DNA of 64,000 nucleotides, taken from Antedon bifida (lineage: Eukaryota; Echinodermata; Crinoidea; Comatulida; Antedonidae). The DNA is taken from positions 15,006,501-15,070,500 of the forward strand of contig OY727094.1 in NCBI GenBank assembly GCA_963402885.1. The letters are read 5' to 3'. This document shows, piece after piece, positions 22,922 through 50,400 of the stretch (the first letter of the stretch is position 1; every line of letters begins with the position of its first letter). The notes beneath the pieces were generated by a model, which saw nothing but the letters and a program-made list of their open reading frames with translations, had not been told where the DNA came from and made no database searches. Made by a program: the position numbers and the translations under genes.

Positions 22922-24226
22922 GAGTTGACACCTCTGTTAATGCTGCTGCACAGTTACTTGGTCTTGATGTTGATGCCTTAACTAGATGTCTAGCATTCCG
23001 ACAAATCACTGCATCTCACAAGCGTAGAAAGAGTGTCTTTATGAAACCTTGCTTAAAAGATGAATGTCATACAAGGAGAGATTGTCTTGCAAAGTTACTC
23101 TATGCCAGGTATTTTACAAACATTATAAGTATAATATTTGTTTTGTAGTGAAAGGAACCTACTTACTCTTTTAAAATGATCTTGTACAGTATTTGCCTTT
23201 TTACTGACATGTTATACATTCAAAACAAACCAACAGAAGATGTTGTACATATCCAATAACTTTTATTTGCTTCCCCATATGCATGCTGGGCTGCACCAAG
23301 GTGAATTGCCCACAGCAAATCATACATACACCTTTAAACATTCACAAAAATAAAATAAACATACATTACATGCAAACTCTAATACATAGTCAATTTAATT
23401 TCATTTTTATTCTGCCTAATCTCTCTTTCTGTCATGGCCTGACTTTTTTCTGCCTAATTTCTTTCTTTGACATGTAGTTCGTATGTAACAGGAGAAAATG
23501 TTTACATGCAAACGTTTTCAACACTTTGGTTTCACACAAAAAAAAACCTAGCTTTGAAGACTGACTAAATTATATTTTAATGTTTCAGAGTTTCTGATTG
23601 GCTTGTTGGATTCATCAATGGCTGTACCATGGCCAGGAGTTGGCAGTCTTACATTGGTCTACTGGATGTCTACGGATTTGAAAGTTTTTCATTTAACAGT
23701 TTGGAGCAATTATGCATAAATTATGCAAATGAGAAGCTTCAGCAACATTTTGTGCACAACTTCCTCAAAGCAGAACAGGTATTCCAACAAACTTATTTCT
23801 ATATATAGAGTATGCTAATATACAGTTGGTGCAACAGTGTTTTATTAGAGTGATAATATCAAGTTCTTTTATTAAAAAAAAAAAAAAATGAAGAAAAATA
23901 ATATAGCACTTCTTTTAGTTTATATCAAACGAATCTCGTAAAAAAATATCAAAATACTAGTATAATTATAATACAATATAAAATAATTAAGATAACAATA
24001 ATAATTAAAGTTTATGAGAATTATCATTCACTTTTGTTATCTAACAGTGATAATGATGAACCTTTATAAACATAATTATACTGCTGATTAAACAGCCATG
24101 TTTATATTATTCTAGGATGACTGTCAATCTGAGGAAATTCCATGGAAATTTGAAGACTTTACTGACAATAAAACATGTCTTGATATTATTGAAGGCAACA
24201 TCAGTATATTTGCTCTCATGAATCAA
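22922..24226 (+). CDS. MYO19: MYO19 switch II region (exons 22922-23108, 23589-23778, 24116-24226)
   Basis: All three exons are open and phase-consistent (1-2, 2-0, 0-0). They carry the [15 protein letters not shown] and [10 protein letters not shown] helices, switch [29 protein letters not shown], and [18 protein letters not shown] up to LMNQ. This is the best preserved part of the motor. The exons that should follow are not found downstream. Confidence 0.9.
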
Positions 24227-31079: not shown

Positions 31080-31160
31080 TTAGACTGTTTCTAGTAAGTC
31101 TACAATATCCATTCTCTCAACTGCTCTCAAGGCTTTTATTACTTCCTCTTGTTGAAATGG
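31080..31160 (-). pseudogene. Detached copy of the C-terminal part of a death-domain exon
   Basis: Minus-strand reading gives EEVIKALRAVERMDIVDLLE followed by a stop, nearly identical to EEVIKALRAVERMDIVELLK at the end of exon 31822-32088. It lies just downstream of the gene's stop codon and lacks the first two thirds of the domain. It is either a relic of a tandem exon duplication or an unused alternative terminal exon. Confidence 0.8.
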
Positions 31161-31184
31161 TGAAATTTAAACGTCTCCTCCATT

Positions 31185-31684
31185 TCATCTTTTTAACACC
31201 TCTTTAACCTCTTCTATTTTGGCCTCATTCAGCAACCCACGGGTTTCAAAGTCCAAAATCAAACTCCAGCTGTCTGTATACTCCTTAAAGACGGGGAAGT
31301 TGTATCGTCCATCAAGAGTTTTTATCTCTGAATCACTAAGACTTTTTCCAAGATTAAAGATCTCTCTTGTGCGTGGTGAAAATGATGCTACCTTACGCTT
31401 CTTGATATTTTTGAAAGCAGGAAGCTTTTCTTTAATGACCGACTGAAAGCCAAATTGTTCCGTTACTTTTATTGCATCATACAGGACAGAAAGATTTGTT
31501 TGACTCAATTGTTCATATGCAGTTAAAAGAGCTAACAGTTTTATTGTACTGGTAACCCTTTTCAACTCTTGAATGTCATCTACTATTTCTATGCATAGAA
31601 CTTGTAGTCTGTTAAGGAGACCACGATCATCAAACCATTGTGAAAAGTCTGCAATCAACTGTTTAAAATTATCTTCCGAGAAAT
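31185..31684 (-). CDS. Terminal exon: tandem death-effector-like domains
   Basis: 166 codons including TGA at 31185-31187. The first unit, FKQLIADFSQWFDDRGLL..LQVLCIEIV..LALLTAYEQLSQTNLSVLYDAI, fits the six-helix DED pattern with the ..LF..L....LS..NL..L helix 5-6 segment. The second, NLGKSLSDSEIKTLDG..LILDFETRGLLNEAKIEEVKEVL, matches the L-E-x-R-G-L-L-x-E-x-x-I/L hallmark closely. Tandem DEDs are known from initiator caspases and c-FLIP. No caspase domain follows. Assignment is by pattern, not by search. Confidence 0.65.
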
Positions 31685-34600
31685 CTACATGGTTGAAGAA
31701 AAGCAAGTTTCCAATATTATGAAATAAATTTAGTATAATTAGCAAAATTAAATTCTTAAAAAATCTTTTTGAGACTGCATAAAATGTATTTTCTGTAAAA
31801 ATGTTAAATAAAGATACCCACCTTGTCCTGATTTCTTTAGTAATTCTACAATATCCATTCTCTCAACTGCTCTTAAGGCTTTTATTACTTCCTCTCGTTG
31901 GTTCACATCTCTTCCTTGCTTACATCGCCATTGTACCAGTGATTCCATAGTTGCTTCTACAGTCTCCGCTGAAAACCTCCTCTCAGTTTGTGATAGCTCA
32001 ACATCAGCAATACCAAGATTCCTACAGAAGTTATTCCAATCTGTCGTCTTCTCAGAAATTATCAGGAAGTCCAAGTCTGTTAAGCATCCTGTAAAATTTT
32101 AATTTATTATATAAAACACATTTTGGTTGTTTTTCTATAAATATTGAGGTGCTGAAATTAAGTAACATTCCTGGAATATATAATTAATAATAAACAAATA
32201 ACAATCTTACTTAAAAACAAAATTAGCTTTAGCTCTAAAATTCTAAAAAAAATCATGTTTAAATATAAAAACATATAAAGAATAGTAAGCATTACCCACC
32301 TTGTCCTGATTGGTCTGTAAACATTGGAACTTCAAAACTGACATCATCTTTGTATTCCTTTCTTTTACACAGACTATCAGCTAAATCAACACGTCCTTGT
32401 TGTTTTAAAGCCTTGATCACTGTAGGTAGTTGATGTGCTTCTGCATGTTGCCAGCTATTTTTCCATTGCACCAAAACTTCCATCATGGCATCTTCTACAT
32501 GTTTGTTTTCGCCTGTACTTTTACTAATGTTTTCCCATTTGAGTCCAAGTCGCACTGCTAATCTTCTCCAATTTTGCCCTAAATTGTCACAGATGAATAG
32601 CAGATCTTGATCATCAATACAAACTGTAAAATAATGAGAGAAAGAGAATGCTTTGATAAAAATAATAAAATGTATTCAATTATATCATAAAAAAGCATTT
32701 TGTTTTATAAAAAAAAATAAATCATTAGTAAACATTCTATTATAATGCCAGTCAAAAATAATTTTTTTAAATCATAATAATCCATGAGCCTAATTACTAA
32801 TTATTTTCTATGATAAAGAATTACAAGATAACTAAATATAGCATAAATGATTAAATAATCTCTCTAAACTATTGAAAAAAAACCCACCAATGATGTTGAT
32901 ATGTTTCAAACATAGGGCTTCAAGCTTTCATAGACTGAAGTCTATACCATTCAGAATAACAGCTAGCTTGCAAAAACCATTAGTATATGTCAATGCTTTA
33001 GAATTAATTAATGGCATAATCAACTTCATGAATTATTCATGATTTCTGAAAATGATGAAAAAGTAATGATGCCAGCATTCAGGCTATACATATGAATGCA
33101 ATATACCTGAATGTTTGATAATTTGTGGCAGTTCATCCTTAATGTATTTCTCAAACTGCTTAGCAATATCATTACGACCATGTTGTCTTAGTGCAGTGCA
33201 TAATACTTGTTGCTGATTAAGGTCACTACCAATGCTGCTTCTCCAACGTTTCAGCATCCTTGCTGTAGCTTTATCTGCCTGCTTTTCATTATAAAAAATA
33301 TTATTCACTGTAGACCATGTAAGCCCCAAACGAACACCAAATCGTCTACAGGAAAGATCCATCTCTGTAGATACACTTTCAATAGTAAGGTCATCCACAC
33401 AGTCTATGATTAAAAAAAATGTTTATTCTATTTTTTTAAATTATTTTCACATGGATGTGTCTGAAAAGGTAAACAGACAAATTAATGTAATAATAAGCAA
33501 TAATAAAAAAATAATAATGCAAAAATAAGGTTCAATCAAGTCTTCTTCTAATAGCTGTACTAAGGTGCAAACAATGTATATTATGATACGAAATAAGTCT
33601 GTGTCTGTGAAAGTCATACTTACCAATGTTATTCACATACCTGTCTTCAATGGACTCCTCTGGAAAAAAAAGATTAACAGAATATTTAAGCTTTCACTAT
33701 GAATTGAAAATCATAAAAAATGCTTACTGTAAATCTTTTGATTTTATTTAGCTTCTAATGTGTACAGACACAACTGGATACATACATTTTCAACAAGGGT
33801 CTCAAGGCATAGTAACAAATAGAGAAATGAAATTTGCCCAAAAATACATCAATCAGTTGAAACCAGCATTTTTAAAACTATTATTAGGGCATATAATAGG
33901 ACACGTATATCTGAAATTTTGGAAAGGAACAAATATTGGTAAGTATTACAGTTTTGTCAGAGAGAAAAATAACATGGATTGCAACATTATTCATTTTTCG
34001 TCAACATCCTACCTAGGCTTCATGTGATCTTAAACTTAAAAACACAAATAATAATTTACCCTTTGATAGGACATTGTCTCCAAACAGATTACGGTAACGT
34101 TTCACTTCCATTCCTCTGCTTCCACATGGCAACACATCTTTGTCAAATTTGCGTACAACATGCATATGAGTAGGTTCACCTTTTGAAGCACACACACAAG
34201 GGATGTACATCTTTACTTTAACACCATGTGCATTCTTCTCACTCAAAAAGTGTAATTCTTTTTGAAGGAAACTAAGCACCTGAAAAATATTTTTTTTAAA
34301 ATAAAGTTGTAACAGTAATGCAATAACAATTAAAAAGGAACAAATTAACAGGCATATATCAGTATTTCTAATGGCTAATTGTGTAAATAGAATTATGCTT
34401 GTGAAAGATGTAAAAGCAACATAAGTTGGAGGTAATTCTAAATAAAGTGTAGAATGTTTGACACTGGCTTACCTTCTTACAGATGCTAGGTTGTGGATCA
34501 TCATCTTCAGGAGAGCTGCTTCCTGATTCTGTGTTCATGATTGTCGTTCTGACAATTGTTGTCTGCAATTACAAAAAAACAAATCAATCCTTTGAACATT

Positions 34601-37600
34601 TTTACTCAAATCTAAAAGTCCATATTATTAGCTTTTCTATCACGCCACAAGATTTTCATCTTCATTGGATTCTGCCGTTGTCCATTATTTGTCATTATTG
34701 TTTTTTTACCTCATTGTCTTTTGGTCGAAATAATAGACTTTTGAGTAGAATTAAATAAAACTATTTATTATTATTTTACCTGGAACAAACGACGGTTGTT
34801 AATAGTAGCAACATTTAGAAGCACAAGATGATGGCCATCAACATTCAGTTTAACATGCTCATAAGACAATGTAGGCTCAACATCTTCCATTTGAAATTCC
34901 TCAATAAATTTAGTTGCAACACGTTGGAAGAGATCATCTGGAAGGTAGCCATCAAAGTCATGAAAGAGAGAAATAGCACGCTTCTCTTCATATTTAACAG
35001 CCTTTGTATCATCACGTTGGGGCTTTAGGCGAGAAAGAACATAGAACATTCGTCCAACATTCTATAGAAACAAAAATGGAAAATGAGTCCTAGATAGAAT
35101 ATATGAACAATTAATTGAACTAAAATTTTAAATAAAATGTAAATACCTCTTTACTCCTTTTTTCACACATTAACCCAAAGGTTTGCATGAGAGACACAAA
35201 GAAGATAATCATCTCATCTGACTCATCCTTCCAAATATGCTGCAACAGTCTTTCATCTAGTTTGCCCCCATTTAAATTTCTCCAAAGCTGTTTCAGAGAT
35301 GGCTAAAAAACATAAAAGCACAAAAGTGCAACAAAGTAATTATTATTCTTCTTGTCAGTACAACCTCTCTTTTAAGAAAACCTTATTGAAGCTTACTTGT
35401 GAAATGAATGAGAGGCAGATTAACACCACGGCTAACCTCTATTAAGGGGACACTTTGTTGGGTCTTCTCTTAAACCTTATTGAAACTTACTTGTGAAATG
35501 AATGAGAGGCAGATTAACACCACAGCTAACCTCTATTAAGGAGACACTTTGTTGGGTCTTTCCTTAAACCTTATTGAAACTTACTTGTGAAATGAATGAG
35601 AGGCAGATTAACACTATGGCTAACCTCTATTAAGGAGACACTTTGTTGAGTCTTCTCTTAAACCTTATTGAAACTTACTTGTGAAATGAATGAGAGGCAG
35701 ATTAACACTATGGCTAACCTCTATTAAGGAGACACTTTGTTGAGTCTTCTCTTAAACCTTATTGAAACTTACTTGTGAAATGAATGAGAGGCAGATTAAC
35801 ACCACGGCTAACCTCTATTAAGGGGACACTTTGTTGGGTCTTCTCTTAAACCTTATTGAAACTTACTTGTGAAATGAATGAGAGGCAGATTAACACCATA
35901 GCTAACCTCTATTAAGGGGACACTTTGTTGGGTCTTTCCTTAAACTTTATTGAAACTTACTTGTGAAATGAATGAGAGGCAGATTAACACTATGGCTAAC
36001 CTCTATTAAGGGGACACTTTGTTGAGTCTTCTCTTAAACCTTATTGAAACTTACTTGTGAAATGAATGAGAGGTAGATTAACACCATGGCTAACCTCTAT
36101 TAAGGGGACACTTTGTTGAGTCTTCTCTTAAACCTTATTGAAACTTAGTTGTGAAATGAATGAGAGGCAGATTAACACTATGGCTAACCTCTATTAAGGA
36201 GACACTTTGTTGAGTCTTCTCTTAAACCTTATTGAAACTTACTTGTGAAATGAATGAGAGGCAGATTAACACCATGGCTAACCTCTATTAAGGGGACACT
36301 TTGTTGAGTCTTCCCTTAAACCTTATTGAAACTTACTTGTGAAATGAATGAGAGGCAGATTAACACCATGGATAACCTCTATTAAGGGGACACTTTGCTG
36401 GGTTTTCCCTTAAACCTTATTAAAACTTACTTGTGAAATGAATGAGAGGCAGATTAACACCATGGATAACCTCTATTAAGGGGACACTTTGTTGGGTCTT
36501 CCCTTAAACCATTGAAACCTGTGTGGCAGATATTACATTTTTATAGCTAAACTCATCACACTGAAAAAAATTACCACAATGTTTACGTCTGATATTCACC
36601 AATGATTGACACCACTCAAAGAAGTAAAGTTTGCTAACCTGTATGCTGGGATCTATAACTGTGATGATTGTTTTAAACTTGTCAACTACTCCCATCAAAT
36701 CTATAACAATTTTTTCTTTGAGGATCTTGTCATCTGGGTAGAACAGGATCTCACCGATGTCGTGCAAGTACTCAAGAAACAGTTTTCTGTCAGTTATCTT
36801 ACAACGAGCAAGTAAATCATTAATCTAAAAGGTAAATAAATATCATAATGAAAAATGTAACGAAAAAAAAAAGTTGATTAATTACAAACTGATAAACATT
36901 TGTTGAAGATTCACCATAAACAGTCAATTAACACAGGCAGAAAAGCAGGGATTACTGTTATATTACTATCAATAACAAACTTGTATCCCACACAATTTCA
37001 AATGTAATGAGTTTTTTTTTTACTTTAAAGGCCAGGTGCGGGCAAACAATTTCTATTGATCATACATTCCAATAATTATCGATCTATATGTTTCATATTT
37101 TTTGAGATTTTATTTGTGTTACACGAGCTTGTTGAAAATAAGCACTTTCTTATCAGTGGGGGGATAGTTCAAATTACACAGTAAAATCTCTATTCTTTTG
37201 TACACAAGTTTTGTAAATAGAGAGTCATTTTAAAAAGCTATGAAAAATAAACGGTGTGGTAAAAAATGTTATCAGATGACTAAATATAGGTAATATAACT
37301 TGAAAATTACATTTCTGGTATTTTTATTCAACTTCAGATTTTTATTTTCATGCTATAGCAAAAATTATCCACCGTATATCCACCGTATATCCACCATCTT
37401 TTTTCACCGTCTAGGGAGTCACCAGACATGTTATTACACTAGGTTAACTACCTAACTACTGAAAAAAAGTCTTCCTGGTTTTTATGGAAGAATTTTGCCA
37501 AATTTTGTATTTGACCATATTAAGGGAAATTCATATTTTTTCGTCTTGATTTCTGTTACAAATATTTGATTTATGTACAATTGACCAAATATTATATTTA

Positions 37601-40600
37601 AAATTTATGCCTGTACCTGAGCTTTAATTAACACCATTCAATGCAACACTCAGAAAAACAGGGTTTAATGCTTTAATGTGATTTTAAGAATAAACAAATT
37701 TAATGTTATGTTATGTTATGTTAAACATTAAAAGACACATTCATCAATCAATCTGTTAAAGATATTTATTCTAACCTCAGATGTTGGTAGATATAGTTTG
37801 GCTTTTCGTAACTGTTGTATTTCCAGAAGTACTTGCAGCCATTTGATTGGCAAAGTAAGAATCATCATCTGGACTAATTTTTGTATTTGGAGAATGATTT
37901 TAGAAGCACCGCTCTTTTCAAATGGGACACTGTTTTCAATGGTAAAGAGCTCTCCTTGATACACCATGTCCTCAAATGGTTTTCCTTCCAGGGCTTTCCA
38001 AAGTATATTCTCTATTTCCTTTACCTTAAATAAATAACATCATATTGGAATTATACTTATGTCAGGGGAAGATTTAGAGTGTGCCTAGCCAACCCCAACT
38101 CCTTGTGTAAAGTGCAAAAAGTGTTTCATTTAATTTATGTTACGCATTTACTTACCCAGTGTACATTGTATAATTATACCAATATAAGAAAACAAATTCA
38201 AAATGTGTGCTAAATCATAGATATTTGTATAACCTTTAATTTGTTTTATTATATCCAAATGAAAGATAAAATTAAGTTAAGTTAATCAGTTAATCATAAG
38301 CCAGCACAGTACAGTAGTATGCTCATGACATGACGTATAATACAATCATACATGATTGCCAATGTTAGTGATGAAACTACATATTGTTTCCAATGAATTA
38401 ATGACAATATACAATTTTGTACTGTTTAAAAGGAAATGTGATGACATATGTACCCTTTGTTGTCTTTCTTGTTCAGTTTTACCAAGGCTCTCATAATGTG
38501 TACCAATCAGCATTATCTTGTTATTTTGACCTTTTCTTACATTTACAAAAACTGAACGACTCCAAAACAGAATGAAGTCAAGATTTGTCATTCGATGTTC
38601 ATACAGTTTTCCCTAAATAAAAAAAAATGAACAAAATTTACATTTTAAATTCTATGAATTCTAGTTTGAAACATTGTGGCAAATTATCTATTATTATTAT
38701 TAGCAGCACAAATTTATATAGAAAAACAACACTATCATGGAAGTGGAAATAACAACAATCATATATCAGGCATCTGCTATTAACAACACTATCATAGAAG
38801 TGGAAATAACAACAATCATATATCAGGCATCTGCTATTAACAACACTATCATGGAAGTGGAAATAACAACAATCATATATCAGGCATCTGCTATTAACAA
38901 CACTATCATGGAAGTGGAAATAACAACAATCATATATCAGGCATCTGCTATTAACAACACTATCATGGAAGTGGAAATAACAACAATCATATATCAGGCA
39001 TCTGCTATTAACAACACTATCATGGAAGTGGAAATAACAACAATCATATATCAGGCATCTGCTATTAACAACACTATCATGGAAGTGGAATTAACAACAA
39101 TCATATATCAGGCATCTGCTATTAACAACACTATCATGGAAGTGGAAATAACAACAATCATATATCAGGCATCTGCTATTAACAACACTATCATGGAAGT
39201 GGAAATAACAACAATCATATATCAGGCATCTGCTATTAACAACACTATCATGGAAGTGGAAATAACAACAATCATATATCAGGCATCTGCTATTAACAAC
39301 ACTATCATGGAAGTGGAATTAACAACAATCATATATCAGGCATCTGCTATTAACAACACTATCATGGAAGTGGAATTAACAACAATCTGCTATTAACAAC
39401 ACTATCATGGAAGTGGAAATAACAACAATCATATATCAGGCATCTGCTATTAACAACACTATCATGGAAGTGGAAATTACAACAATCATATATCAGGCAT
39501 CTGCTATTAACAACTCTATCATGGAAGTGGAAATAACAACAATCATATATCAGGCATCTGCTATTTGCACAGTTTGTGTTAAGGTAAAGGATGACATGAA
39601 GGAAACATTTTATTTATGTACAATTACATAAACATTTGAAACTTGTAAAATCTACTTACAGTTGTTGGATCACGAACTTTAGCTGGGGCATTAAGACCTT
39701 CATTCAGGTTAAATACCACACATACAACAGCATAAGACACCATGAATATCTAGTAAACATAATCATAATAGTCAATATTACAAACTGTTTATACACATGT
39801 GTCAGTATACTGGCACAACTGATTATTTGATACTTTTGTTTTCCTCACAAAGTGCATGTTCACATTGGAAACATTTACAATCTTAATCATTGGTTTAATA
39901 AATAATGAATGTTTAATATCACATTCTTTCTTTTCTATCTCTCTCTGCTAATAATACATTATATTACATCAATTAATACTATTTTACTTAAAGTCTCCCA
40001 AAACTGGACACCCTTTGGCTGGCAAAATATGTCTGGGTTTACAGAAATTCTGATATTCCAAATGTATTTTTAAAGGTAAAACAGAATTTGGAACTTTTGA
40101 CCTCAATTCTGGTTTTGGTTTAAGGTAATCAGAGACTAGAGACTAAGTTGATTGTATTCAAATTAAATGAAGAATAAAATAATTTATAATATTGTAATAA
40201 TAATAATAATTGTATTTTATATCTGATACTGACATATTGTACTATATTAGATCCACATTTTTGTAATACCTTGGAGGAAGATTATAGGTTCTTAACTTCA
40301 AATCAAGTGAGCAAGCTTTTTGATTTCAGTGCTGATATTGTAACAAGGCCAAAAGACAAAGTATACATTGAAACTAACAGAAGCTCAGAAGAAGGCATGT
40401 ATATTGAATATTGACGGCAAAACTAATCTCTATTAATAAAAATTAAATACACCAATAAAATTTACCCGTTGTATCACATGGTAAATTGGTTGACCACCAA
40501 AGTCCCAGATATTCATAACAAACTTGTTGCTATCCACTTTAGAGTCACCACCTTCTCTTGCAGAGCGAAGTTTGCTTACAAATTTGTTCCTGAACCCTTT

Positions 40601-43600
40601 AGGAATTTCTGGTTTTTCTTCATACACTGGTTCTGTTGTGATAAAACACATACAACAACTTGCATTAGGTCTCATATGTGATTACCAACTATAACTTTTT
40701 TATTTAAAGAAAAAGTATTTCCAATGCAATATTTAAGTATTCTAAACCTTATCCTTTCCAATCAATAGTTTAGTGATGAGTTTATTTAACCACATTGTAC
40801 TGCAAGTTGAATAGATTACACAGCAGTGTCATACAATATACAAATATTAGTATTAACTGTCAAAGTAACTTGCAAGATAATATATGTTCATTAGCAGACA
40901 CTGATGATTATGATTAAATTTCCGCTCCTTTAATCATTTCAATATTTAGCACTTTAGTCTTTATTTCTGATATCATTAATATGTATGAACAGCAAAATCA
41001 AACACATTTCAAAATAAATATTTACCCTCTTTTTGTGGGCTTGGCATTGGATTTGTTCTTTTTGATGTTTCACCAGATTTGGCTTCCTGTTTTGATGTTA
41101 ATGCTTCTGTGGGGTTTTTCTCTTTCTCAGGTCTACTTTCTGAAAAATGTGTTAATATAATTAAAGATGCTACCTTGTTATAAATAGCATAATGTATTAA
41201 CATTCATCATTATGCTTTATAATCAAATTAACTTGGCAAGAACAAAGTTTAGTGTAATGAATCATTTGTTGCCGATTCCAACCTGATCCAATTTGCCATC
41301 ATTATTATAATATGTGTATCTTTTGCATTCTCTATTTGAATTCAAATGTCACAGAAGTAATCACAGCAAAATGTTGTATAAACCTCTCTTTTATCCACTT
41401 CTATATTAAATTTATTTTAAAAAATCTCTTTTGTACCAATTTTATATTGACTGGTATTTTGTGCCTTTTATATTTATACTTTTAAATTTATTTTACAGCA
41501 GATTACTGAATTGAATTTCATTAAAATCTTTTACCAGATTTTGTTTCCTGCTTTGATGGTCCTGCTCTTGGTGTGTATCCTTTTGTATGGCGTGGACTTT
41601 TCAACATTTGTTTAACTGTGACATCAGTGACAGCATCCTGATACATGTCTAAAGCTTTTAAATTAAAAAATGTTAATAAAATCATGTATATATTATTTTA
41701 TTTCTTACACAGTTACATACCTTGAAACTATTTTTATGATGTTGTTGCAATAATTTAAAAACTAATTTATCCTCAAATTGAATTTAAATAACGTGTATGT
41801 TTATATGGTAGTGGTTTTCTCCATGCATTTATGAAATATCAAAGTGTGTGCAAGAACTAGTCACAAATTGTCAGCAAATATTAAACCTAGAGTGTCTTTT
41901 AAATTGAATTACAATGACATGATATAAGAACAACAATTATTTGGTAAAAAAAATAAAAAACAAGTTGTGACATGACAGTGCATGAGTCAGGGGTGAATTT
42001 TAAATTTGGAGTGGAGTTGTGGCTTGGTGGTTATGGTGCTTGGCTACCAATTCAAGGGTCCTGGGTTCAAGTCCTGTCATATGTCAGGATTTTTTCTAAT
42101 GACAAATTACAACTCCACTCCCAAAGACTTGTAATAAGACTTTGTTTATGTAGAGCATCTTGTGTATGTTTGTCTTGTGAACATGATTGCTACCTTTAAG
42201 AAGAATAGTGAATTAATTCGCTATGGTTATCTTTGGCAATTTGCCTAAATAATTATAAAAAATAAATAAATCATCTATTTTGGTTGCAGCATGTATCTGA
42301 ATAAAGTGAATACTTACAAGTATCCTGCGTTGTTTCTTTCAACATTTCTTTGTTACTGGCATCTGGTGTACACACCGTTGTTTTCACCATTGCATCTGTT
42401 ATTATATGCAATGGATTAAACCTATGACAAAATGACATTATATAATTATAAAAGAATGTTTGCATTAATAATAAAACAGAAAATAATTTGATGGTATACT
42501 GCAATTACATTGTTTTTACGTTGCATTAAAATCTTATTTTAAACCCTCAACATACCAAGAACACTAAAGGGCCAAATACTTCAACAATCAAACAATAATT
42601 TTAATAGTAAATTTTAATCAACTATATTCTTACTCTTTTACATTGTGATATTTAGATTATTTATATTTAGATTATGAGGATCCCAATAAAAATAAGATAT
42701 TTAAGCTATTTTGGCTAGCTATGTGTATGGGTGACCGGAATACAAGCTTTACTTTGATGGTCACTCTCATCAATATTTGCTATGTATTTTGATATTATTT
42801 TATGGTGAAATAAATTGAAACTATTCAGGAAAAATGTTTCAAATGTCTTATTCTTGTAATTATACAGTAACAACTGTATGTAACAGTGGTTAAATGTAAT
42901 AGTTGTAATTGATATAAAGTATGCTTACTGTTTTCTTAAAAGAGAATTGATAGTAGAAGTTTTTCCAACATTCTCAAGTCCTACAAAAATAGTTCTTCCT
43001 TGATTAAACTCTGTTTGTCCTTCTTCAAGTGCAGTTTGAAATGCTTTCACCGCATCAGGTCCTCGTGCCAATATCTCCTCTGGAACATGCACATCTTAAA
43101 AACAAAATATAAGGTACAATAATTATTGTATAACTTCCTGATTGTTTGTATACTACTGGATAGCAATTAATACTCTTTATAAAATTGAACAGTTTAATAT
43201 GCACTAAGAATGTCTTATGAATACCTCAATCATTACTTGAAATAAATTAAGGTCATAATAGCAGAGTACAAAGATTAAGGTATACTCTATATAGAATAAA
43301 ATACTTCAGCAATTCGTCACAAAAAACAGATACTGATTTTCATCAAATGCAACAATTGGTTTGATAAATATGTGGTACTAATAAGGTATATGCCAACACT
43401 TAAGCTTATAAGCCGATGCTCACAAATGCGACCAAAATTTAGATGTAGACATTTCTGCATATTCAAAAGTTTTTTCATTTATTATTATAAACACACAGAA
43501 TATTGTTACAAAGCCTTTAAGAACCTTATAAATTAGAGAGTTCAGTCATTCTGAAGGCTATCTTATGGTTTTATTTACTTACTTTCAATTTTATCAGCCA

Positions 43601-46600
43601 CATCTTTTTCCTCAGCTTTCCTGAGTGCTGCAACAAGTTCTGAACGCATGGACTTCTTAGTAACCTTAGCCTGCCATGCATCCAACATGTCATAAGTCCT
43701 TCCAGAAATGTTTCTATCTGGTAGTTCAAATGAATTTATATCTTCTTGTGTCATTCCAAGATTAGCTGCTATTATTTTCCATTTATTGTTGGCGTTATTG
43801 GCAATGTATATTAATTCTTTGGTTGTAATATCTAAATAAAATAAAATATAAATATTATACTGTTTTTAAAATATTCTAATAAATCCTAAAATATTAGTAT
43901 TTTGTTAGTTTGATTCCATCTACCCATCTCAATTTCTAGATCTAAATTACCCAAATGTAATTTTGTGAAATGTTGACTTTGTCTATAGTTGTTTTATAAT
44001 TTGTAAATAAAATAATAGTTCAATAATGATAAACTATTTATTTTCTAAAAAAAAAATACTTTTTTATATTTCTTACGTAAAATAATATTTAAGTAACTGT
44101 TACAACCAGTTTATTTATAGATATTGTGAATACCAAAATCTCCATAACAAATAGAACATAAAAGATAGCTAATGTTATAGACCAAGATTAATTTTTTAAT
44201 TCATTTTTTTATTGGAAACAATTATAGCCCTATTGTGGGGCATTGAAATTGAAGAATATTCATACCTGACGATGTCATTTCGATGTAAGGTAAAGGTCCA
44301 CCTAAACAAGTAAAATGAATGTGTATATCAAGCTTTTCAGTGCAGAATTACAGATTGGAAATAATTTAGGATATAAAGGACAAACATATTTTTAAATTAC
44401 CTTTGGGACCAACATGTAGATATTTATAACAGAATTAGTAGCACACAAAATAGAAGACAGGATAAAATGCACAACTGAAACCATATTACACATTGGCATG
44501 CCATGAAGTACCATACGCCTTGTGTTAGATAACAAACCTAACGCTGCGAGTCTGAACATACCCTGTACCAACTGTGTTGAGATGAGCCGCTATTTGAATC
44601 AATCTACTTTTTTTTTTATAAATCATATTTTTTAATTTGTTTGATTATATGACTGACTACAAATACTACAGGATAAAAAGTGATCATTAATTCTATTTTT
44701 AGAAGTTCATGCTTTTATTTGAGGCACAATGTGTTTTTTAACTTACCATTCAAAATTGCAAGTATTTCTGTTTTTTTCTGTTCACCATCGTATTTATCGC
44801 ACACATTTTCATTATAGATATCAGATGCAGACATTCCATTCTGACAATCAAAGTGTTTGTGATTTAAAATAACAATATTAGCAATTCTAGTTATAAGCAT
44901 AAGTTATGATACATCCCTCAGCTACTCTTTTAAAAAAAATTAAAAAATTCAGCTTAATTTCATAATTTGCAAGAACATACTAAACCAAAAGATAAGCCAA
45001 ACTAAATAATACTAATAGGTAAAATAACCCTGGCCATTAAAAAAAATCAAATTATGACAAATATATTTCATAATAGTTATGCAAATTCCAGATATTTCAA
45101 AGGTCAATAACTTTACTATTGGCCATATCTTGGAAAAAATATGCCACTGGACTAAATCTACTTCCACTCAGTGCGATTTTATGCATTAATATCACTAAAC
45201 TCATTTTCCACGATATTTTTCCCAGGGTGCCGGACACGTTAATCCAAAGCACGATGTGAAATCAGCTGAAATATAATATTTATGGGGTTTTTGGGCCAAA
45301 ATCATTTCATAAGCCATATAATAACCACACATGCCATTAGATTTAAACTAATTAAATACATGCTCTGAAAATAAATCATTTTTGGTCTAAATCATGTAGC
45401 TTACTAATAGTCCAAAAGTAACCTGCAACTGAAATAAATGTTATAATGATGAGCAATTGAGAAGATAAATTTAATATCAAATGATATGTCAACTATAATT
45501 TAAAGAAATATAGAACAAATACTTAATGTAGTTTCAATATTTATATTATATGTATTTATTTATATAACGTATACTTCAGTTTACAGTAAAATATGAGACT
45601 AAAAGTAAAAATAATGGAAGCATGCTGTTTAAACAATTCAATTTAGATTTACAATTTAACAATACAATGTGAATACTGTAATGAAAAAATAAAAACGAAA
45701 TGTTACCGTAATAACTATAAATATATACTATATTCATTTTAATATTTCTGTAATTAATCATTCCATCAAACAAATATACAGGAACATGTGAGGAGGTGGA
45801 TGGGCAATAGACTGTTCGAGGGTCAGACAAGAAGAAAATAGCCTGTAATATTTTCAATGATAATTCTCCTGAGGACGATCAAAGCATATTGATCGAAACG
45901 TCGAGAAACTCAACAGTTTTTTTCAGAACTAATATACATGGTGTACTGCAAACTTGATATCAACAGATAATAATAAAAAAACCTTTTTGTTTCTATTTGC
46001 TATATTTTATATAACTTTAAAAAAAAAGAATAGAACTAAACTTTATTATTAAAATAATTGCATTGCAGTACTTAATAACAAACTAACCTTATTTGTCTTG
46101 CAAATGTCCATACGTCCTTCCTGTATGAAGAACACAAAGGCATTTTTGTGCTCTTCATAAGTAAGCTTTGCTCGAGCAATTATATGCAGAGCGTTGTCTC
46201 CATTCTTGAAAAAAGTGAAAAAAAAAACAAAGTGCACAAGCTGTACTAATACTGTGAATATTATATTTTGATTGTACATACAACCCTTTAGTAAAAACTC
46301 TCCAATTTCATTTACGAAACATGGATGATTTATAAATAATATAATCAAAACCTACTGAATGTTTACCATTACTTATCTATCATTTGATTGATTATATTGA
46401 TTGATTATATTTACTGAATACAAAAAGAGCATATTTATTTAGCAAGATATCTGGAGAGAAAAAACCTTTTCATTTAAAGGACATATTTCTTTAGTGAAAT
46501 TTCAATATACTTTGCAGACGATAAAAATGGTATACTTGGATATCAGTTATACTACTTTATGATTGATTCAGATTCAGATTCAGATTCAGATTCAGATTCG

Positions 46601-47471
46601 ATTTATTAAGTCATTCATACATAGTATAATGATAATTGTTTTCTTGGCAGAAAAACACAAGCAAAACAATACATACATAATATTTACATTCGTGATCAAC
46701 TTGGAACTAACAACAACAACAACAAATGATCAAAAAAAAAATACAACAGACCTAATGACCTATCTTTGAAACTCACTGTTGTATAGTCTAATAGCGCTAG
46801 GTAAGAATGAAAATTTATGTCTATTGTTTCAGCTTAGAATTTTATTCATTATAATGCTATACAAAAGCTTCTTGTCAGCTTTTTAAACTATTTTACATCA
46901 AATCTTTTTGAATCAAAAGATAAAATATTTGGTTTTATCTCAATATCTCTATGGTTTTATATACTTTTGCTTTAAGATTCTATAAATAGGTTGGTGAATT
47001 TACAGTGGAATCAATAATACCTACAATAATATCATGGCACCAGCCAGGTACAGATATAGGAACTCTTTGCATAGAGTGTGGTACACAAATAGAATGCACT
47101 AATTTGAGGATAACAAATATAGGCCTAAAGAACATTTAACATTCAGGATTGAATGGTGGTAGCTGATCAACTTGGATTATAATATGGTTAAAAAAAAATC
47201 CAGATTATTCTGTCCTAGTGATGGAGCGAAAGGGTGAGGGGGTAGGTGCAGCAAATAGTATAATCCTCACAGTATTGTGTAATACCTGCATACACTGTGA
47301 TATTTACAATATGATGCAATAATACATGCATAATTATATGAAATTACTAGATAGACTGTGTATACAACTTACATTGTTTTGCTGGTTCACATTACAACCA
47401 GCATCAACTAATACCATACAGCATGCAGTTTGACCATAGGATGCAGCTAACAAGAGTGGTGAATATCCATT
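31185..47471 (-). CDS. ROCO-family GTPase with ankyrin, multiple death and death-effector domains (5' end missing)
   Basis: Exons, transcript order: 47373-47471, 46088-46204, 44747-44840, 44266-44301, 43583-43831, 42929-43094, 42318-42421, 41535-41648, 41026-41139, 40466-40632, 39660-39749, 38454-38612, 37776-38024, 36639-36824, 35147-35302, 34780-35061, 34473-34562, 34060-34279, 33624-33659, 33107-33403, 32300-32623, 31822-32088, 31185-31684. All 22 junction phases agree and no stop occurs in 4116 nt (1371 residues). Approximate order: ankyrin 1-103, death 116-198, ROC 200-503, COR 504-897, death 910-1008, 1009-1116 and 1117-1205, DED-like 1206-1371. ROC-COR is the GTPase/dimerisation core of LRRK and DAPK proteins, and death folds recruit signalling partners, so a cytosolic apoptosis/innate-signalling role is inferred. 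It is most like DAPK1 without a kinase seen here. More ankyrin exons or a kinase could lie upstream. Confidence 0.85.
31822..33403 (-). CDS. Three tandem death-domain exons
   Basis: Exons 33107-33403, 32300-32623 and 31822-32088 each encode one death domain. Hallmarks are the WrrLAvrLGL / FCRNLGI helix 2-3, a central W in helix 5 (MLKRW, VLVQW, SLVQW) and a terminal AL....R.DIA/DLA/DIV helix. Each exon enters and leaves in phase 1. The last two share the ending SGQ and the donor GGACAAG|GTGGGT, so they look recently duplicated. Confidence 0.85.
33624..34562 (-). CDS. C-terminal COR region and linker exons
   Basis: Exons 34473-34562 (acidic linker SGSSSPEDDDPQPS), 34060-34279 (VLSFLQKELHFLSEKNAHGV, VKMYIPCVC, GSRGMEVKRY) and the 36-nt exon 33624-33659. 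Phases 0-0, 0-1, 1-1. They connect COR to the death-domain array; 34060-34279 resembles the distal part of ROCO COR domains. Confidence 0.65.
33752..33938 (+). other. Antisense exon-like segment of unknown identity
   Basis: On the plus strand, inside a ROCO intron, TTTATTTAG precedes 62 open codons (MCTDTTGYIHFQQGSQG, NREMKFAQKYINQLKPAFLK) that end ATT G|GTAAGTAT. Acceptor, donor and coding-like composition are all good. It could join in phase with the segment at 40251 (G|AT). I recognise no family. Confidence 0.35.
34780..38024 (-). CDS. COR domain exons
   Basis: Exons 37776-38024 (VKEIENILWKALEGKPFEDM), 36639-36824 (LLARCKITDRKLFLEYLHDI GEILFYPDD), 35147-35302 (LKQLWRNLNGG, MIIFFVSLMQTFGLM) and 34780-35061 (FYVLSRLKPQ, ISLFHDFDGYLPDDLFQRVA). 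The blocks FLEYLHDIGEILFYP, the L..LM..FGL helix and G.LP..LFQR.. are the diagnostic COR signatures of ROCO proteins such as LRRK2 and DAPK1, in the right order. All junctions are phase 0. Confidence 0.85.
35380..36515. repeat. 94-bp tandem array (about 12 copies) in a COR intron
   Basis: The unit covers CTTACTTGTGAAATGAATGA, GAGGCAGATTAACAC, GGCTAACCTCTATTAAGGGG and ACACTTTGTTGGGTCTTC. Copies differ by single substitutions. It occupies the intron between exons 36639-36824 and 35147-35302 and contains no exon sequence. Confidence 0.95.
37030..37395 (+). repeat. Dispersed repeat, inverted partner at 57.6-57.85 kb
   Basis: Shares TTGATCATACATTC, AATAATTATCGATC, AATAAACGGTGTGGTAAAAA and TATCAGATG.CTAAATATA with the reverse complement of 57590-57850. 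No coding content was seen; it is a non-autonomous element or a solo piece. Confidence 0.7.
38454..43094 (-). CDS. ROC GTPase domain exons
   Basis: Exons 42929-43094, 42318-42421, 41535-41648, 41026-41139, 40466-40632, 39660-39749 and 38454-38612. G1 P-loop GLENVGKT (residues ~237-244), G3 WDFGGQPIYHV (~407), and G4 IMLIGTHYE (~485) where ROC domains have a GTH-type motif. Between G1 and G3 sit two 114-nt phase 1-1 exons encoding a Lys/Ser/Pro/Glu-rich insert with repeated SKQE(T/A)KSG, so they look like a duplicated disordered loop exon. VCVVFNLNEGL is the strand after switch II. Confidence 0.85.
38733..39565. repeat. 57-bp tandem array (about 14 copies) in a ROC intron
   Basis: The unit runs ATGGAAGTGGAAATAACAAC, AATCATATATCAGGCATCTG, CTATTAACAACACTATC; one copy is truncated near 39385. 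Nineteen codons per unit keep a frame open (MEVEITTIIYQASAINNTI repeats) for more than 200 codons, but it sits antisense in an intron and is not a gene. Confidence 0.95.
39994..40075 (+). other. Antisense exon-like segment
   Basis: A CTTAAAG acceptor, 27 open codons (LPKLDTLWLAKYVWVYRNSD) and an AAG|GTAAAA donor on the plus strand, phase 2 in and 0 out. It could join 40279 (acceptor in CTTGGAG) in frame. No family recognised; the alternative frames also remain open for a while, which weakens the case. Confidence 0.25.
40251..40414 (+). other. Antisense exon-like terminal segment
   Basis: After ATATTAG, 53 open codons (PHFCNTLEEDYRFLTSNQVS, LFDFSADIVTRPKDKVYIE) end in TGA at 40412-40414. AATAAA follows at 40454, overlapping exon 40466-40632 of the ROCO gene on the other strand. 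The composition is protein-like, but no family is recognised. Confidence 0.35.
42010..42272 (+). mobile_element. tRNA-derived SINE
   Basis: The pol III A box (TGGCTTGGTGG, 42020-42030) and B box (GGTTCAAGTCC, 42064-42074) are spaced as in a tRNA gene. They are followed by a body and an A/T-rich tail ending AATAAATAAATC. It does not fold as a complete tRNA. It lies in a ROCO intron, antisense to that gene. Confidence 0.75.
43583..43831 (-). CDS. N-terminal death-domain exon of the ROCO gene
   Basis: Eighty-two codons, phase 1-1: DITTKELIYIANNANNKWKI, IAANLGMTQEDINSFEL, MLDAWQAK and LVAALRKAEEKDVADKIE. The W-K-x-I-A-A-x-L-G, central MLxxW and terminal AL....-DVAxxIE segments are death-domain signatures. 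It lies between ankyrin repeats and the GTPase. Confidence 0.8.
44747..47471 (-). CDS. Ankyrin-repeat exons of the ROCO gene
   Basis: 47373-47471 is exactly one 33-residue repeat (NGYSPLLLAASYGQTACCMV then LVDAGCNVNQQN). 46088-46204 is NGDNALHIIARAK..FIQEGRMDICKTNK. 44747-44840 is NGMSASDIYNEN..KKTEILAIL, a capping repeat. All three begin with the codons AAT GGA directly after AG, in phase 0. Confidence 0.8.
45060..45420. repeat. Diverged copy of the 24.4-kb/28.8-kb repeat family
   Basis: It shares a TCAATAACTTTACTATTGGC-type segment and a comparable series of short blocks with the sequences near 24.8 and 29.3 kb. Intronic in the ROCO gene. Confidence 0.35.
45869..45902 (+). ncRNA. Hammerhead-ribozyme-like motif
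   Basis: CTGAGGA (45869-45875) fits the CUGANGA core. A perfect 7-bp stem II, CGATCAA/TTGATCG (45876-45882, 45889-45895), has a 6-base loop. GAAAC and GTC follow (45895-45902). This is the core layout of the minimal hammerheads in Penelope-like retroelements. Stem I and a self-cleaving dimer arrangement were not established. Confidence 0.5.
46560..47000 (-). mobile_element. LINE 3' terminus with (GAATCT)n tail
   Basis: On the minus strand KFSFLPSAIRLYNSEFQR followed by a stop (about 46770-46825) is the typical C-terminus of CR1/L2-type ORF2. It is followed by a short 3' region and an AATAAATC(GAATCT)n tail at 46563-46608. Truncated at its 5' end. Confidence 0.65.
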
Positions 47472-50400
47472 CTAAAAAAATAGATTATAATATGTCATAC
47501 AACTATAACAAACCTCTTTAGCAATGCACAGTAGAAGCATGACCATTAATAATTGTGGTGTAATTAAAAATATTTTTCAGTATATATATATTGTTAGATT
47601 ATTTAATTCAATCATGATCATAATAAAAAGTTTACACAGTGAAGATATACTATTGAATATTTTGAATGTTAAATGTTCTTTAGGCCTATATTTATTATTT
47701 TTTCAAAAATAAACATCAATATTTTAATTATTTATTGTGCAAACATGATGTTTTTCACCGCTATTATATTGTAACTATCTATATATTTCGGTATTAATAT
47801 GTTATAAGTAGTAGTATAAATAATCAAAACACATATATACCATTGTAAAACTTTTGATGAAGTTTTATAAATTGCACTAAATGAATCAATGGTTAAAAAT
47901 GTCTAATAATGGTATTTCAACTAAGTATTAAATAGGCTGTGTACATCATAAGTTAACAGTTTTTAGTCTCATTGAGTTTTATAGCTCCATGATTTGGTAG
48001 ACTGCAATTGTATTTTAAGAACAGCACTTAAAATTAATATAATATAATATAAATACAATTGAAAGATTTTAATGTAAATGATTTTAATTAAGATAATTTA
48101 CATTGGCAAATCTCACTCTGAATACATTTAACCATTTCACATTAAACATTAGTGTGGTAAAAGACCTACTTGACAAACAATACATTATATGGACACATTT
48201 AATATTAAAAACTCATTATAATCCAGCATTTGAACAGAGAAATATTATTGAGAAAGGTTTTCATTTAATTTTCTCCCTGTCACCTTATTCAAGCTGTGAC
48301 AATTGTATTTATCATGGCTCTGCACAACCATTAACAAACATAAGAATGGTTGTCAATATTATTAATAAAGGACAAAATAAAATCTGATCCCATCACAATG
48401 CACTTTTATATGATGATCTAGCGAACTCAAGTAGAATAATATAGGTGGCTTCTTGTGTCTTGTGCCTTGTGTTGGAAGGCATTGGATAATAAGACACAAA
48501 AAGGTGTACAAGGGTGTCTTTAGCTGTGCTTGATAGGCTGCACTATCATAGACGGGTAGATGTTATTGTGTATTAAATAGTTTAAAAAAGAGATGATAGC
48601 ATTCGGTTTATTCTATTAAAAAAAGTGGTAGGTTATATAGGTTATACGATAATGTTACTATTGTAGTTTTAATGGAATGAAACTATGTTATGGAATAAAT
48701 CTACAAAGGCATAGTATTATGCGCTGTTTAAACACTGTATTCATGTTGGATAAGGTATTCAGATTAAGGTGTATGTATATATTCAGATGGTAGTGTAAAT
48801 CCCATATTATTTTTGTTTAAGCAATTTAATAATTATAGAAACTACTAATTCATTTTGTTTCAGTTTTGTTCAGAAATATATGTTTGATGTTCTTCTGAAT
48901 TTAGTTTTGTGAGCATAAAATAATATCATGACTTGTTTTTGTATGCAATGTGTGACAATGCTCTATTAACACATGTACCCAATTAATGAAAAGGGCGTTG
49001 CAAACTACAGAAAGCCACTAATCTCTTTTCTGTATTGACATCATGCTCTTATACTCTTTCATGGTTTTATACTTTATGCACTTTGTCATTCTCTTATACA
49101 CGATGTTAAATGCACCAGGGTTCTAGCACTGTCTTTTTTTTCTCTTTTGTGGCTTTAACCAGCACTTTTGTTCATTCATTCAATGACATGATTAATACAA
49201 ATTAATCAGTAATATGTAATACAGTAGTTGTCATAAATCTACAATATTCATAATCTATTTGATCATTGTTATCCAATATAATCCTAATTTTTCTGTCATT
49301 GTTGTATATCTTTATCAATATAATATTCAAAATAAAGACCAAAAACCATTCATTCACAACAACATTCAATCCGCAATGTGTTGCTGTTCTAAATATTGCA
49401 TCTTTATAATCTGTTTAAATTGTTATTATCCAATAAAATTCTCCCTTTTCTTTCTTTTTTTGTGTATTCTTTAACCTTTTGATCCATGTATAATAATGTG
49501 TATATAAACATTAAAAACAGCTGTAATTATTAAAAAAAAGCATTATATAATATAAACATTAAAAAGGCGTTAGCATTATAGGAATGCTAAATTTTGTTAG
49601 TCATTGATAATCAACTTAAATAGTATCCAGAAGTTTTTGCACACTGGCTGAATATTTAATTCAGATGGTATCGTAATATGTATAGTATAGAGTCGGGGCC
49701 TGTCATCACAATCACCATGGATATGTGACTTAGTAACACATATTATTTTCCTTTTTAGTATATATATTATTTTAACTTTGAAAGAATAAAATGGAGCTCA
49801 GGAGGCCATGCTTTATTTATACTACAAAAAAAAGGATTTTATCTCTGTCCACAGCTTTTACACTATTACAGACTGACACGTCTCAAACTTTTGGGATTCA
49901 TTTAAATATAAAAGATAGAACCTTGATAATATAAATATGAATATGCATGCATAAAACACATGAAAAATAAAATCTAAAAATGACCACAAATGATTACAAC
50001 AGAAAAAATGTATTAATAGATTAATACAATTTAAAGAAGTTAATAATAACACATACATGTAAATATATTTTTTCATACTCTATAAAGAGTTGTAAAATAA
50101 TTCTGCAATATCGTTGATATGAATAAACTATTTGATTTGTTTTCTTAATAGTTAATAGTAATTTATAAATTCATTTCATTTCAAGTAACATTTATTACTT
50201 TTTCTTTCAAATAAAACGTTAACATTTGACAAAAATAAATAATTAAAATAAATAATAAATATACTTTAAAACTTTATCAAATTTTTAAAAAATGCTAAAA
50301 AGAAGAGGCTAAAGCCCTAGAAGTTATACATCAATTGGATTACTCCAAATTGACACTTGTGGTAGGCAAGCCAGGTACAATAAATGTACAAAATTGTGTG

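What the first reader, a model, noticed from the sequence alone, without database searches (positions are those of the whole stretch)
31185..47471. A ROCO GTPase carrying ankyrin repeats, four death domains and tandem DED-like domains
Twenty-three exons with fully consistent phases and no stop give one frame with ANK x3 - death - ROC (GLENVGKT, WDFGGQ, GTH) - COR - death x3 - DED-like x2. Known relatives have ANK-ROC-COR-death (DAPK1) or leucine-rich-repeat ROCO layouts. Coupling a ROC GTPase switch to an array of death-fold recruiters on both sides, including DEDs, would make a single-chain platform linking GTP state to apoptotic or innate signalling. The order is read from sequence; the function is inferred.
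Basis: partly seen in the sequence, partly recalled or inferred. Interest (0 to 1): 0.88.

Follow-up and report, generated by a model that had tools for sequence, protein, structure and literature searches.

The report
Expanded ankyrin–death–ROCO GTPase gene family
This animal gene does appear to encode one large GTP-switch protein studded with cell-death docking domains, and it is one of dozens of related copies in the same genome whose front end changes fast and whose back end is swapped between copies, as one would expect of a repertoire of internal danger sensors.

Summary
On the minus strand 23 exons (47471–31185) splice in consistent phase into 1,373 residues: ANK – Death – ROC – COR – Death×3 – DED×2. 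Pfam confirms four Death domains, ROC, COR-A and one clear ankyrin repeat. DED×2 is sub-threshold alone, but 40 of 41 family members match DED at E≤0.1 and the model resembles caspase-8/c-FLIP tandem DEDs. COR-B was not detected; no start codon was found.

Two paralogues keep all 23 exons and splice sites, in place of RNA evidence. A COR exon has at least 36 copies in two same-strand clusters. C-terminal classes: Death×3–DED×2, Death×3, DED×2. Ours is a chimera: a DED segment inserted into the last death exon, leaving a 63-bp duplication. Among six C7 copies dN/dS is 0.2–0.5 for ROC–COR and 0.9–1.1 for ankyrin and Death1; with a C10 copy the latter falls to 0.6–0.7.

Best reading: an NLR-like, GTP-gated platform for DED signalling with a diversifying input half. 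Mechanism inferred. New variant of a known kind.

The parts
47373..47471 (-). exon 1: ankyrin repeat 1 (phase 0 in, phase 0 out); internal exon, no start codon
   Evidence: Pfam Ank 3.5e-9, residues 1-33 of exons 1-4
46088..46204 (-). exon 2: second, divergent ankyrin-like repeat
   Evidence: Ank_2/Ank_4 matches reach residues 41-45 only
44266..44840 (-). exons 3 (44840-44747) and 4 (44301-44266): degenerate ankyrin-like stretch (by eye) and short linker
   Evidence: conserved in order in paralogues; no Pfam support
43583..43831 (-). exon 5: Death domain 1, hypervariable among copies
   Evidence: Pfam Death 7.1e-14; AlphaFold2 six-helix bundle pLDDT 92.5; Foldseek top hits are death domains, best E 1.6e-3, none at E<=0.001; nonsyn/syn ratio 1.15
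42929..43094 (-). exon 6: ROC G1/P-loop, GLENVGKTS
   Evidence: MMR_HSR1 match, sub-threshold, starts here; 79% identical exon in the distant copy C7:28.64M
41026..42421 (-). exons 7-9 (42421-42318, 41654-41535, 41139-41026): about 113 residues between the G1 and G3 exons, largely charged by eye
38454..40632 (-). exons 10-12 (40632-40466, 39749-39660, 38612-38454): ROC G3 WDFGGQ and G4-like GTHYE
   Evidence: Pfam Roc best stretch 398-438; phmmer to 3dpu and relatives around DFGGQ
34060..38024 (-). exons 13-18 (38024-37776, 36824-36639, 35302-35147, 35061-34780, 34562-34473, 34279-34060): COR-A and the region where COR-B would lie
   Evidence: COR-A 5.6e-14, residues 564-700; COR-B not detected
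33624..33659 (-). exon 19: 36-nt linker exon, phase 1-1
33107..33403 (-). exon 20: Death domain 2 (phase 1-1)
   Evidence: Pfam Death 3.1e-9
32300..32623 (-). exon 21: Death domain 3 (phase 1-1)
   Evidence: Pfam Death 6.5e-10
31822..32088 (-). exon 22: Death domain 4 (phase 1-1); in copies C, F and H its frame runs into a stop
   Evidence: Pfam Death 9.7e-10
31185..31684 (-). exon 23: tandem DED module and stop codon
   Evidence: Pfam DED in 40 of 41 family members at E<=0.1; AlphaFold2 pLDDT 92.6; Foldseek caspase-8 tDED TMq 0.75
31155..31761 (-). inserted segment, 91-92% identical to DED-bearing copies D and E in which no Death 2-4 exon was found
31838..31900 (-). left copy of the 63-bp duplication (exon 22 nt 189-251)
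31092..31154 (-). right copy of the 63-bp duplication: remnant of the old exon-22 end, running into its former stop and 3' region
   Evidence: 95% identity; continues into about 75% homology with copies C, F, H
31815..31833 (-). 19-bp patch identical to the exon-21/intron-21 junction, giving exon 22 a donor site
   Evidence: E 7.5e-6

Best explanation
The gene belongs to a locally expanded family of cytosolic ROCO proteins, probably in an echinoderm, that work like NLR-style platforms. The N-terminal ankyrin stretch and first Death domain form the input half, which diversifies between copies. The ROC-COR core is the conserved GTP-controlled switch, and by analogy with other ROCO proteins probably a nucleotide-dependent dimeriser. 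Release of the switch exposes the C-terminal Death x3 and DED x2 arms, which nucleate a death-fold assembly recruiting DED adaptors and caspases (DISC-like). Shown: gene structure, domains, family, classes, the inserted DED exon and the contrast in divergence. Inferred: expression, ligand, GTP gating, partners and outcome.
For: Gene and domains. Linkage of exons in paralogues. 36 copies of a COR exon in two same-strand clusters, counted by hand (lower bound). Intact exon 5 and exon 16 with AG/GT in 20 of 20 further copies fetched. dN/dS among six C7 copies: ANK 0.88, Death1 1.07, ROC 0.46, COR 0.22, Death2-4 0.50-0.67, DED 0.48. On a tree: Death1 121 nonsyn and 27 syn changes (ratio 1.15), exon 16 74.3 and 72.7 (0.28); Fisher p 1.1e-8 on rounded counts treated as independent. 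Death1 changes cluster at the H1-H2 corner and H3-H4 loop. Possible partners in the genome: about 150 tandem-DED-type matches listed for each of two query exons (overlap of the lists not checked), apparent genes with two tandem-DED exons in a row and 28 caspase-domain matches, which count exons, not genes.
Against: No expression, ligand, nucleotide or binding data. With the C10 copy F included the contrast shrinks: ANK 0.63, Death1 0.68, ROC 0.42, COR 0.25, and synonymous divergence is then higher in ANK/Death1 (0.15, 0.20) than in COR (0.12). Intron 4 beside Death1 is more diverged (82-87%) than intron 5 (90-99%) within C7, and other introns are uneven too (13, 16, 18), so local age, mutation or gene conversion explains part of the pattern. 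G4 reads GTHYE where I recall an aspartate as usual, and exons 7-9 separate G1 from G3 by about 113 residues, so nucleotide binding may be altered or absent. COR-B not detected. 5' end unresolved.
Confidence: 0.5

Rival explanations
1. Brake, not trigger: caspase-less DED x2 proteins cap or poison DED filaments, like c-FLIP or viral FLIP, with the ROCO core tuning the brake.
For: The exon-23 family profile puts c-FLIP tandem DEDs first in the PDB, weakly (E 0.0066), and the model matches caspase-8 and FLIP assemblies. No caspase domain in the chain.
Against: Death x3 upstream suggests recruitment as well; caspase-8 tDED is the best structural match; no functional data either way.
Confidence: 0.2
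2. Housekeeping or developmental apoptosis scaffold whose copies are dosage or by-products of segmental duplication, with no receptor role.
For: At least part of the copies sit in segmental duplications that also carry a myosin-head exon: 10 matches including the window's, all on C7 plus strand. ROC-COR is under purifying selection.
Against: Amino-acid divergence concentrates in the ANK and Death1 exons and, in Death1, in two loops; the C-terminus is reshuffled.
Confidence: 0.2
3. The exon chain is a prediction artefact: ANK-Death, ROC-COR and Death/DED belong to separate transcripts.
For: No RNA evidence; no start codon found; DED-type exons of the same kind exist apart from ROCO exons.
Against: Order, phase and splice sites of all 23 exons are conserved in two paralogues, and of the shared exons in others; introns are 85-1,336 bp.
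Confidence: 0.07
4. The array is decaying: relaxed pseudogenes and gene conversion, with the Death1 pattern reflecting neutral drift.
For: dN/dS about 1 for ANK and Death1 among C7 copies; mosaic intron divergence.
Against: No stop or frameshift in exon 5 or exon 16 in 20 of 20 further copies; a nearly invariant 16-codon stretch (one extra amino-acid state, permutation p 0.008) lies in the same exon as the hypervariable loops.
Confidence: 0.1

Closest known systems
DAPK1 group of ROCO proteins (grouping from PMC6337361, passages; ankyrin repeats of DAPK1 recalled)
   Same: ankyrin repeats N-terminal to ROC-COR and a C-terminal Death domain, no LRR
   Different: no kinase found; extra Death domain before ROC, two more after COR, and DED x2; many clustered copies
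Trichoplax adhaerens ROCO set (Civiero et al. 2014, PMC4104024; passages read)
   Same: many animal ROCO genes combining ROC-COR with CARD and death domains; at least 17 genes
   Different: the passages name LRR/TPR, CARD, death and AAA domains; the whole word 'DED' does not occur in the main text; no clusters of near-identical copies in what I read
Aplysia and sea-anemone ROC-COR immune-type genes (PMC9334734, PMC5094078; passages read)
   Same: ROC-COR joined to TIR and/or death domains, attributed to domain shuffling in the anemone paper
   Different: TIR/LRR/kinase partners in the passages seen, not ankyrin plus tandem DED
Sea cucumber LRRK-type genes (PMC11507063; passages read)
   Same: echinoderm ROCO proteins with ankyrin, ROC and COR
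   Different: LRR, kinase and WD40, no death or DED domains mentioned for them
Brown algal LRR-ROC-COR candidate immune receptors (PMC11378527; abstract and section 14 read)
   Same: expanded ROCO family, exon-encoded repeats, exon shuffling and diversifying selection on the input part
   Different: LRR input, no death-fold output
Caspase-8 / c-FLIP / FADD tandem DED and DISC
   Same: exon 23 has the tandem DED fold (TMq 0.75 to 4zbw)
   Different: no caspase domain; attached to a ROCO chain
NLR (STAND NTPase) receptors (recalled)
   Same: variable input, nucleotide-switch core, death-fold output in a clustered multigene family
   Different: core is ROC-COR, not NACHT; no LRR found

Membership tests
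ROCO (ROC-COR) GTPases | ROC GTPase domain | tested here: met
   Pfam Roc 37.8 bits against cut-off 27; phmmer to 3dpu (bacterial Roco by recall) 3.3e-5 for the whole sequence, no single stretch significant; LRRK2 chains only at E 0.22-0.39
ROCO (ROC-COR) GTPases | COR-A directly after ROC | tested here: met
   COR-A 52.7 bits against cut-off 35.3, residues 564-700
ROCO (ROC-COR) GTPases | COR-B | tested here: inconclusive
   no COR-B match at E<=10 in Pfam for 4 members, nor with a 4-sequence profile against PDB
ROCO (ROC-COR) GTPases | GTP/GDP binding and hydrolysis | not testable with these tools
   motifs GLENVGKTS, WDFGGQ present; G4 GTHYE atypical by recall (sequence)
DAPK group | kinase domain N-terminal to ROC | tested here: not met
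   none among 18 Pfam families listed for the spliced protein; the missing 5' exon could not be scanned
LRR-type ROCO / LRRK | LRRs before ROC (and kinase after COR in LRRK) | tested here: not met
   missing 5' exon not scanned
Death domain superfamily (DD) | death fold in exons 5, 20, 21, 22 | tested here: met
   Pfam above cut-off for all four; model and fold search done for exon 5 only
DED family | DED profile and tandem DED fold in exon 23 | tested here: met
   window sequence alone sub-threshold (E 0.0033); 40 of 41 family members match at E<=0.1, best 1.6e-10, number over the curated cut-off not shown; model TMq 0.75, E 8.2e-4 to caspase-8 tDED
NLR / STAND NTPases | NACHT or NB-ARC domain | tested here: not met

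The most novel reading that the evidence does not exclude
A previously undescribed repertoire of intracellular receptors built on ROC-COR instead of NACHT. One genome holds dozens of ANK-Death-ROC-COR genes in same-strand clusters whose first Death domain itself is the hypervariable specificity element (H1-H2 corner and H3-H4 loop), and whose outputs (Death x3, DED x2 or both) are exchanged by recombination. The window copy is a chimera caught with its 63-bp insertion scar.
Probability: 0.37. Interest if true: 0.8.

Novelty: new variant of a known kind. Interest (0 to 1): 0.62.

Why it matters
ROCO proteins include LRRK2 and DAPK1, yet it is unresolved what signal their GTPase reads and whether it directly controls assembly of death-fold complexes. 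A natural family that puts ROC–COR between a diversifying input and death/DED outputs, in versions with and without each output, is a ready-made set of comparisons for that question. It also gives an animal parallel to NLR and brown-algal ROCO repertoires, and a traceable example of how a signalling output is acquired: a DED exon dropped into a terminal death exon, with a borrowed splice donor.

Tried and rejected
More ankyrin exons upstream: phmmer of three ankyrin queries against open segments of 20 aa or more found nothing convincing in 47.5–64 kb. Start exon: seven ATG-to-donor candidates in phase 0. One (47514–47546) is conserved in A, B, C, H and E but would leave a 42-bp intron; another (48284–48331) is conserved in A, B, C and H, not in E or F. 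No start is claimed. COR-B by Pfam and by a profile against PDB: nothing. Direct single-sequence PDB search with exon 23: only two designed proteins at E 1.7 and 2.6; the family profile was needed. tRNAs: none found by ARAGORN. I considered that the N-terminal divergence is just older age. The claim of dN/dS above 1 is not made: 1.07–1.15 was not tested against 1. Species name: not determined. Literature: of ten searches, eight concerned the architecture and two the species. In the listings, and in what I read of seven papers, I saw no ANK–Death–ROC–COR–Death–DED protein; one search listed 20 of 22 papers and 20 of 72, and only open-licence PMC papers are held.

Rows dropped: one search left out H e22, F e22 and E e18–19 as badly aligned, and used only W, A, B, C, H, E (and F), not D or I; one search used 18 of 21 exon-5 and 19 of 21 exon-16 sequences (C10 copy and length variants dropped). 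Genome searches score only the best candidates (81 of 862, 150 of 413, 150 of 529), so copy counts are lower bounds.
Full report
Observation. The minus strand of 31185–47471 carries 23 exons that splice with consistent phases into 1,373 residues and a TGA stop. Pfam finds four Death domains (exons 5, 20, 21, 22 each above the curated cut-off on its own), ROC, COR-A and one clear ankyrin repeat. The best PDB sequence match of the core is 3dpu (3.3e-5 for the whole sequence, no single stretch significant; a bacterial Roco protein by recall), around DFGGQ; LRRK2 ROC chains follow at E 0.22–0.39, not significant. Exon 1 begins at a splice acceptor, so a 5' exon is missing. Nothing convincingly ankyrin-like lies in 47.5–64 kb. 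The homology shared with copies A, B and H stops at the same base, 50810, so the gene's start is probably between 47.5 and 50.8 kb.

Where it is. The window's own assembly is held: 315.6 Mb in 27 contigs, window at C7:15006501–15070500. Its mitochondrial COX1 frame has 5 AAA, 4 AGA/AGG and 7 TGA codons; read as Asn, Ser and Trp they fall in motifs that I recall as conserved (for example RVNNMSFWLLPP). I did not determine the species.

Linkage without RNA. I mapped the 23 exons onto paralogous loci. Copies A (C7:14.35M) and B (C7:16.81M) have 23 of 23 exons in order, AG at each acceptor, GT at each internal donor, no stop, and length differences of 0 (one of +9 in B). C, H, E and F (C10) keep exons 1–17 with AG/GT at the same boundaries and length differences that are multiples of three. 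D shows exons 9–19 and 23 in the 20 kb fetched. In some of these copies exon 18, 22 or, in the distant copy, exon 12 did not align cleanly at its 3' end. The distant copy at C7:28.64M keeps exons 6, 7 and 10–18, with weak exon-23-like pieces on both sides (E 0.003 upstream, 8e-4 downstream). Neutral sequence would not keep this, so the exons most likely belong to one transcription unit; RNA would still be the direct proof.

Family. Of the 97 matches listed, 36 are the exon-16 region in two clusters (23 on C7 between 12.0 and 17.9 Mb, 13 on C10 between 11.7 and 16.2 Mb), all 36 on the minus strand. I counted these by hand; the search scored only 81 of 862 candidates, and most copies were not read end to end. 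The adjacent myosin-head exon has 10 matches including the window's, all on C7 and all on the opposite strand. From the coordinates nine lie about 8–18 kb from ROCO exons of a copy; the tenth, at 11.64M, lies 17.5 kb from an exon-23-type match only. So the unit of duplication is larger than the gene, at least for these. Exon 5 and exon 16 were fetched for 20 further copies (19 on C7, one on C10): splice sites and frames intact in 20 of 20 for both.

The DED claim. Exon 23 alone is sub-threshold (E 0.0033). 150 relatives are listed in the genome (150 of 413 candidates scored). Of 41 aligned (40 fetched plus the window), 40 match Pfam DED at E<=0.1, best 1.6e-10. Their profile puts c-FLIP and then FADD DEDs at the top of the PDB, weakly (best 0.0066); unrelated proteins follow from E 0.4. 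AlphaFold2 gives pLDDT 92.6 and Foldseek returns caspase-8 and c-FLIP tandem DEDs, best E 8.2e-4, TMq 0.75. So 'tandem DED' is right. On C8 the same module lies just downstream of another ATG-bearing exon of tandem-DED look, whose own Pfam DED match is sub-threshold (E 0.0012) and which has 151 matches: an apparent DED-only family exists beside the ROCO family. The genome shows 28 caspase-domain matches.

How the DED got there. Of eight cluster copies read, three (window, A, B) end Death×3–DED×2. In three (C, H, F) the frame of exon 22 runs into a stop within about ten residues of the death domain, and no exon 23 was found in the 6.2 kb (C), 1.3 kb (H) or 1.5 kb (F) fetched beyond it; splicing to some other exon is not excluded. 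In two (E, D) no Death 2–4 exon was found between COR and DED×2. In the window, 31761–31155 is 91–92% identical to E and D. It is bracketed by two copies of exon-22 nt 189–251 (31900–31838 and 31154–31092), and the right-hand copy continues into the old exon-22 stop and 3' region of C, F and H (about 75%). A 19-bp patch identical to the exon-21 donor junction gives exon 22 its new donor. The window gene is therefore best read as a chimera of the Death×3 and DED×2 classes, made before A and B separated from it (98.5–98.7% identical across this stretch).

Selection. Among six C7 copies, pairwise dN/dS is 0.22 for COR and 0.46 for ROC, 0.50–0.67 for Death 2–4, 0.48 for DED (6 pairs), but 0.88 for the ankyrin exons and 1.07 for Death1; adding the C10 copy F gives 0.25, 0.42, 0.63 (ANK) and 0.68 (Death1). 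On a tree of 18 copies Death1 has 121 nonsynonymous and 27 synonymous changes (ratio 1.15), against 74.3 and 72.7 (0.28) for exon 16 in 19 copies. Variation sits in residues 11–18 and 37–46 (42 of 68 extra amino-acid states in 18 of 82 codons, a window chosen after seeing the data; none of 20,000 permutations reaches the observed maximum 10-codon window). The model (pLDDT 92.5) places these at the end of H1, the H1–H2 corner and the H3–H4 loop. From recalled work on death-domain assemblies, that is the type III contact surface; no call tested it. Against a pure selection story: intron 4 next to Death1 is also more diverged, intron divergence is uneven elsewhere, gene conversion is ignored, and the ratio was not tested against 1.

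Mechanism. The anatomy reads as input (ankyrin, Death1), switch (ROC–COR), output (Death×3, DED×2). GTP-dependent dimerisation of ROC–COR is general ROCO knowledge, not shown here. Coupling to DED adaptors and caspases is inferred from fold and from the abundance of DED-type exons. A FLIP-like brake is the main functional rival.

Prior art. ROCO proteins are grouped as LRR-only, LRR-kinase and DAPK-type with a Death domain (PMC6337361, passages). Trichoplax has at least 17 ROCO genes with CARD and death domains among their partners (PMC4104024, passages). Aplysia and sea anemones have ROC–COR with TIR or death domains (PMC9334734, PMC5094078, passages). A sea cucumber LRRK-type gene has ankyrin, ROC and COR (PMC11507063, passages). 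Brown algae have expanded LRR-ROCO candidate receptors with diversifying input exons (PMC11378527, abstract and section 14). Several invertebrates show lineage-specific expansions of proteins joining DED to TRADD-N domains (PMC8195603, passages). I saw this architecture in none of the listings or passages (searches named under Tried and rejected), so I call it a new variant of a known kind.

Noticed in passing
G000 C15:13.46-13.55M and C15:17.2-17.33M: Two dense arrays of Roc-model matches over the cut-off, spaced about 2-13 kb, most in open frames of about 950-1030 aa: apparently single-exon ROCO-type genes, a second, differently built expansion. The Roc model also rings in 8 of 14 control genomes, so the class of GTPase is unconfirmed.
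   Followed up: no
G000 C8, mainly 3.3-4.3M and 14-17.4M: A very large family of apparent genes with two consecutive tandem-DED-type exons; about 150 matches listed for each exon type, overlap not checked.
   Followed up: partly
G000 C12:7.28-7.50M and C12:11.64-11.66M: Exon-23-type DED matches lie about 0.7-10 kb from distant ROC P-loop exons on the same strand, suggesting DED-ROC-COR genes of other layouts.
   Followed up: no
window 22850-23160 and a myosin-head ORF at 23581-23808, plus strand; 10 C7 matches: A myosin-head gene next to the ROCO gene is co-duplicated along C7.
   Followed up: partly
window 7290-7553, minus strand: ORF matching Pfam OGFOD2-like (9.2e-8).
   Followed up: no
introns 14 and 11 of the gene, 35378-36518 and 38725-39565: Two long tandem arrays (94-bp unit, about 12 copies; 57-bp unit) fill introns and probably explain much of the length difference from the paralogues.
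   Followed up: no
G000 C10:14.45M/16.14M and C10:12.46M/15.76M: Pairs of exon-16 copies with identical scores 1.7 and 3.3 Mb apart, suggesting recent large duplications.
   Followed up: no
window 35061-34780 and 43831-43583 against copies 14.36M and 16.82M: The exon-16 protein is identical in the three copies while exon 5 differs by 10 and 16%, hinting at gene conversion or different ages along the gene.
   Followed up: partly
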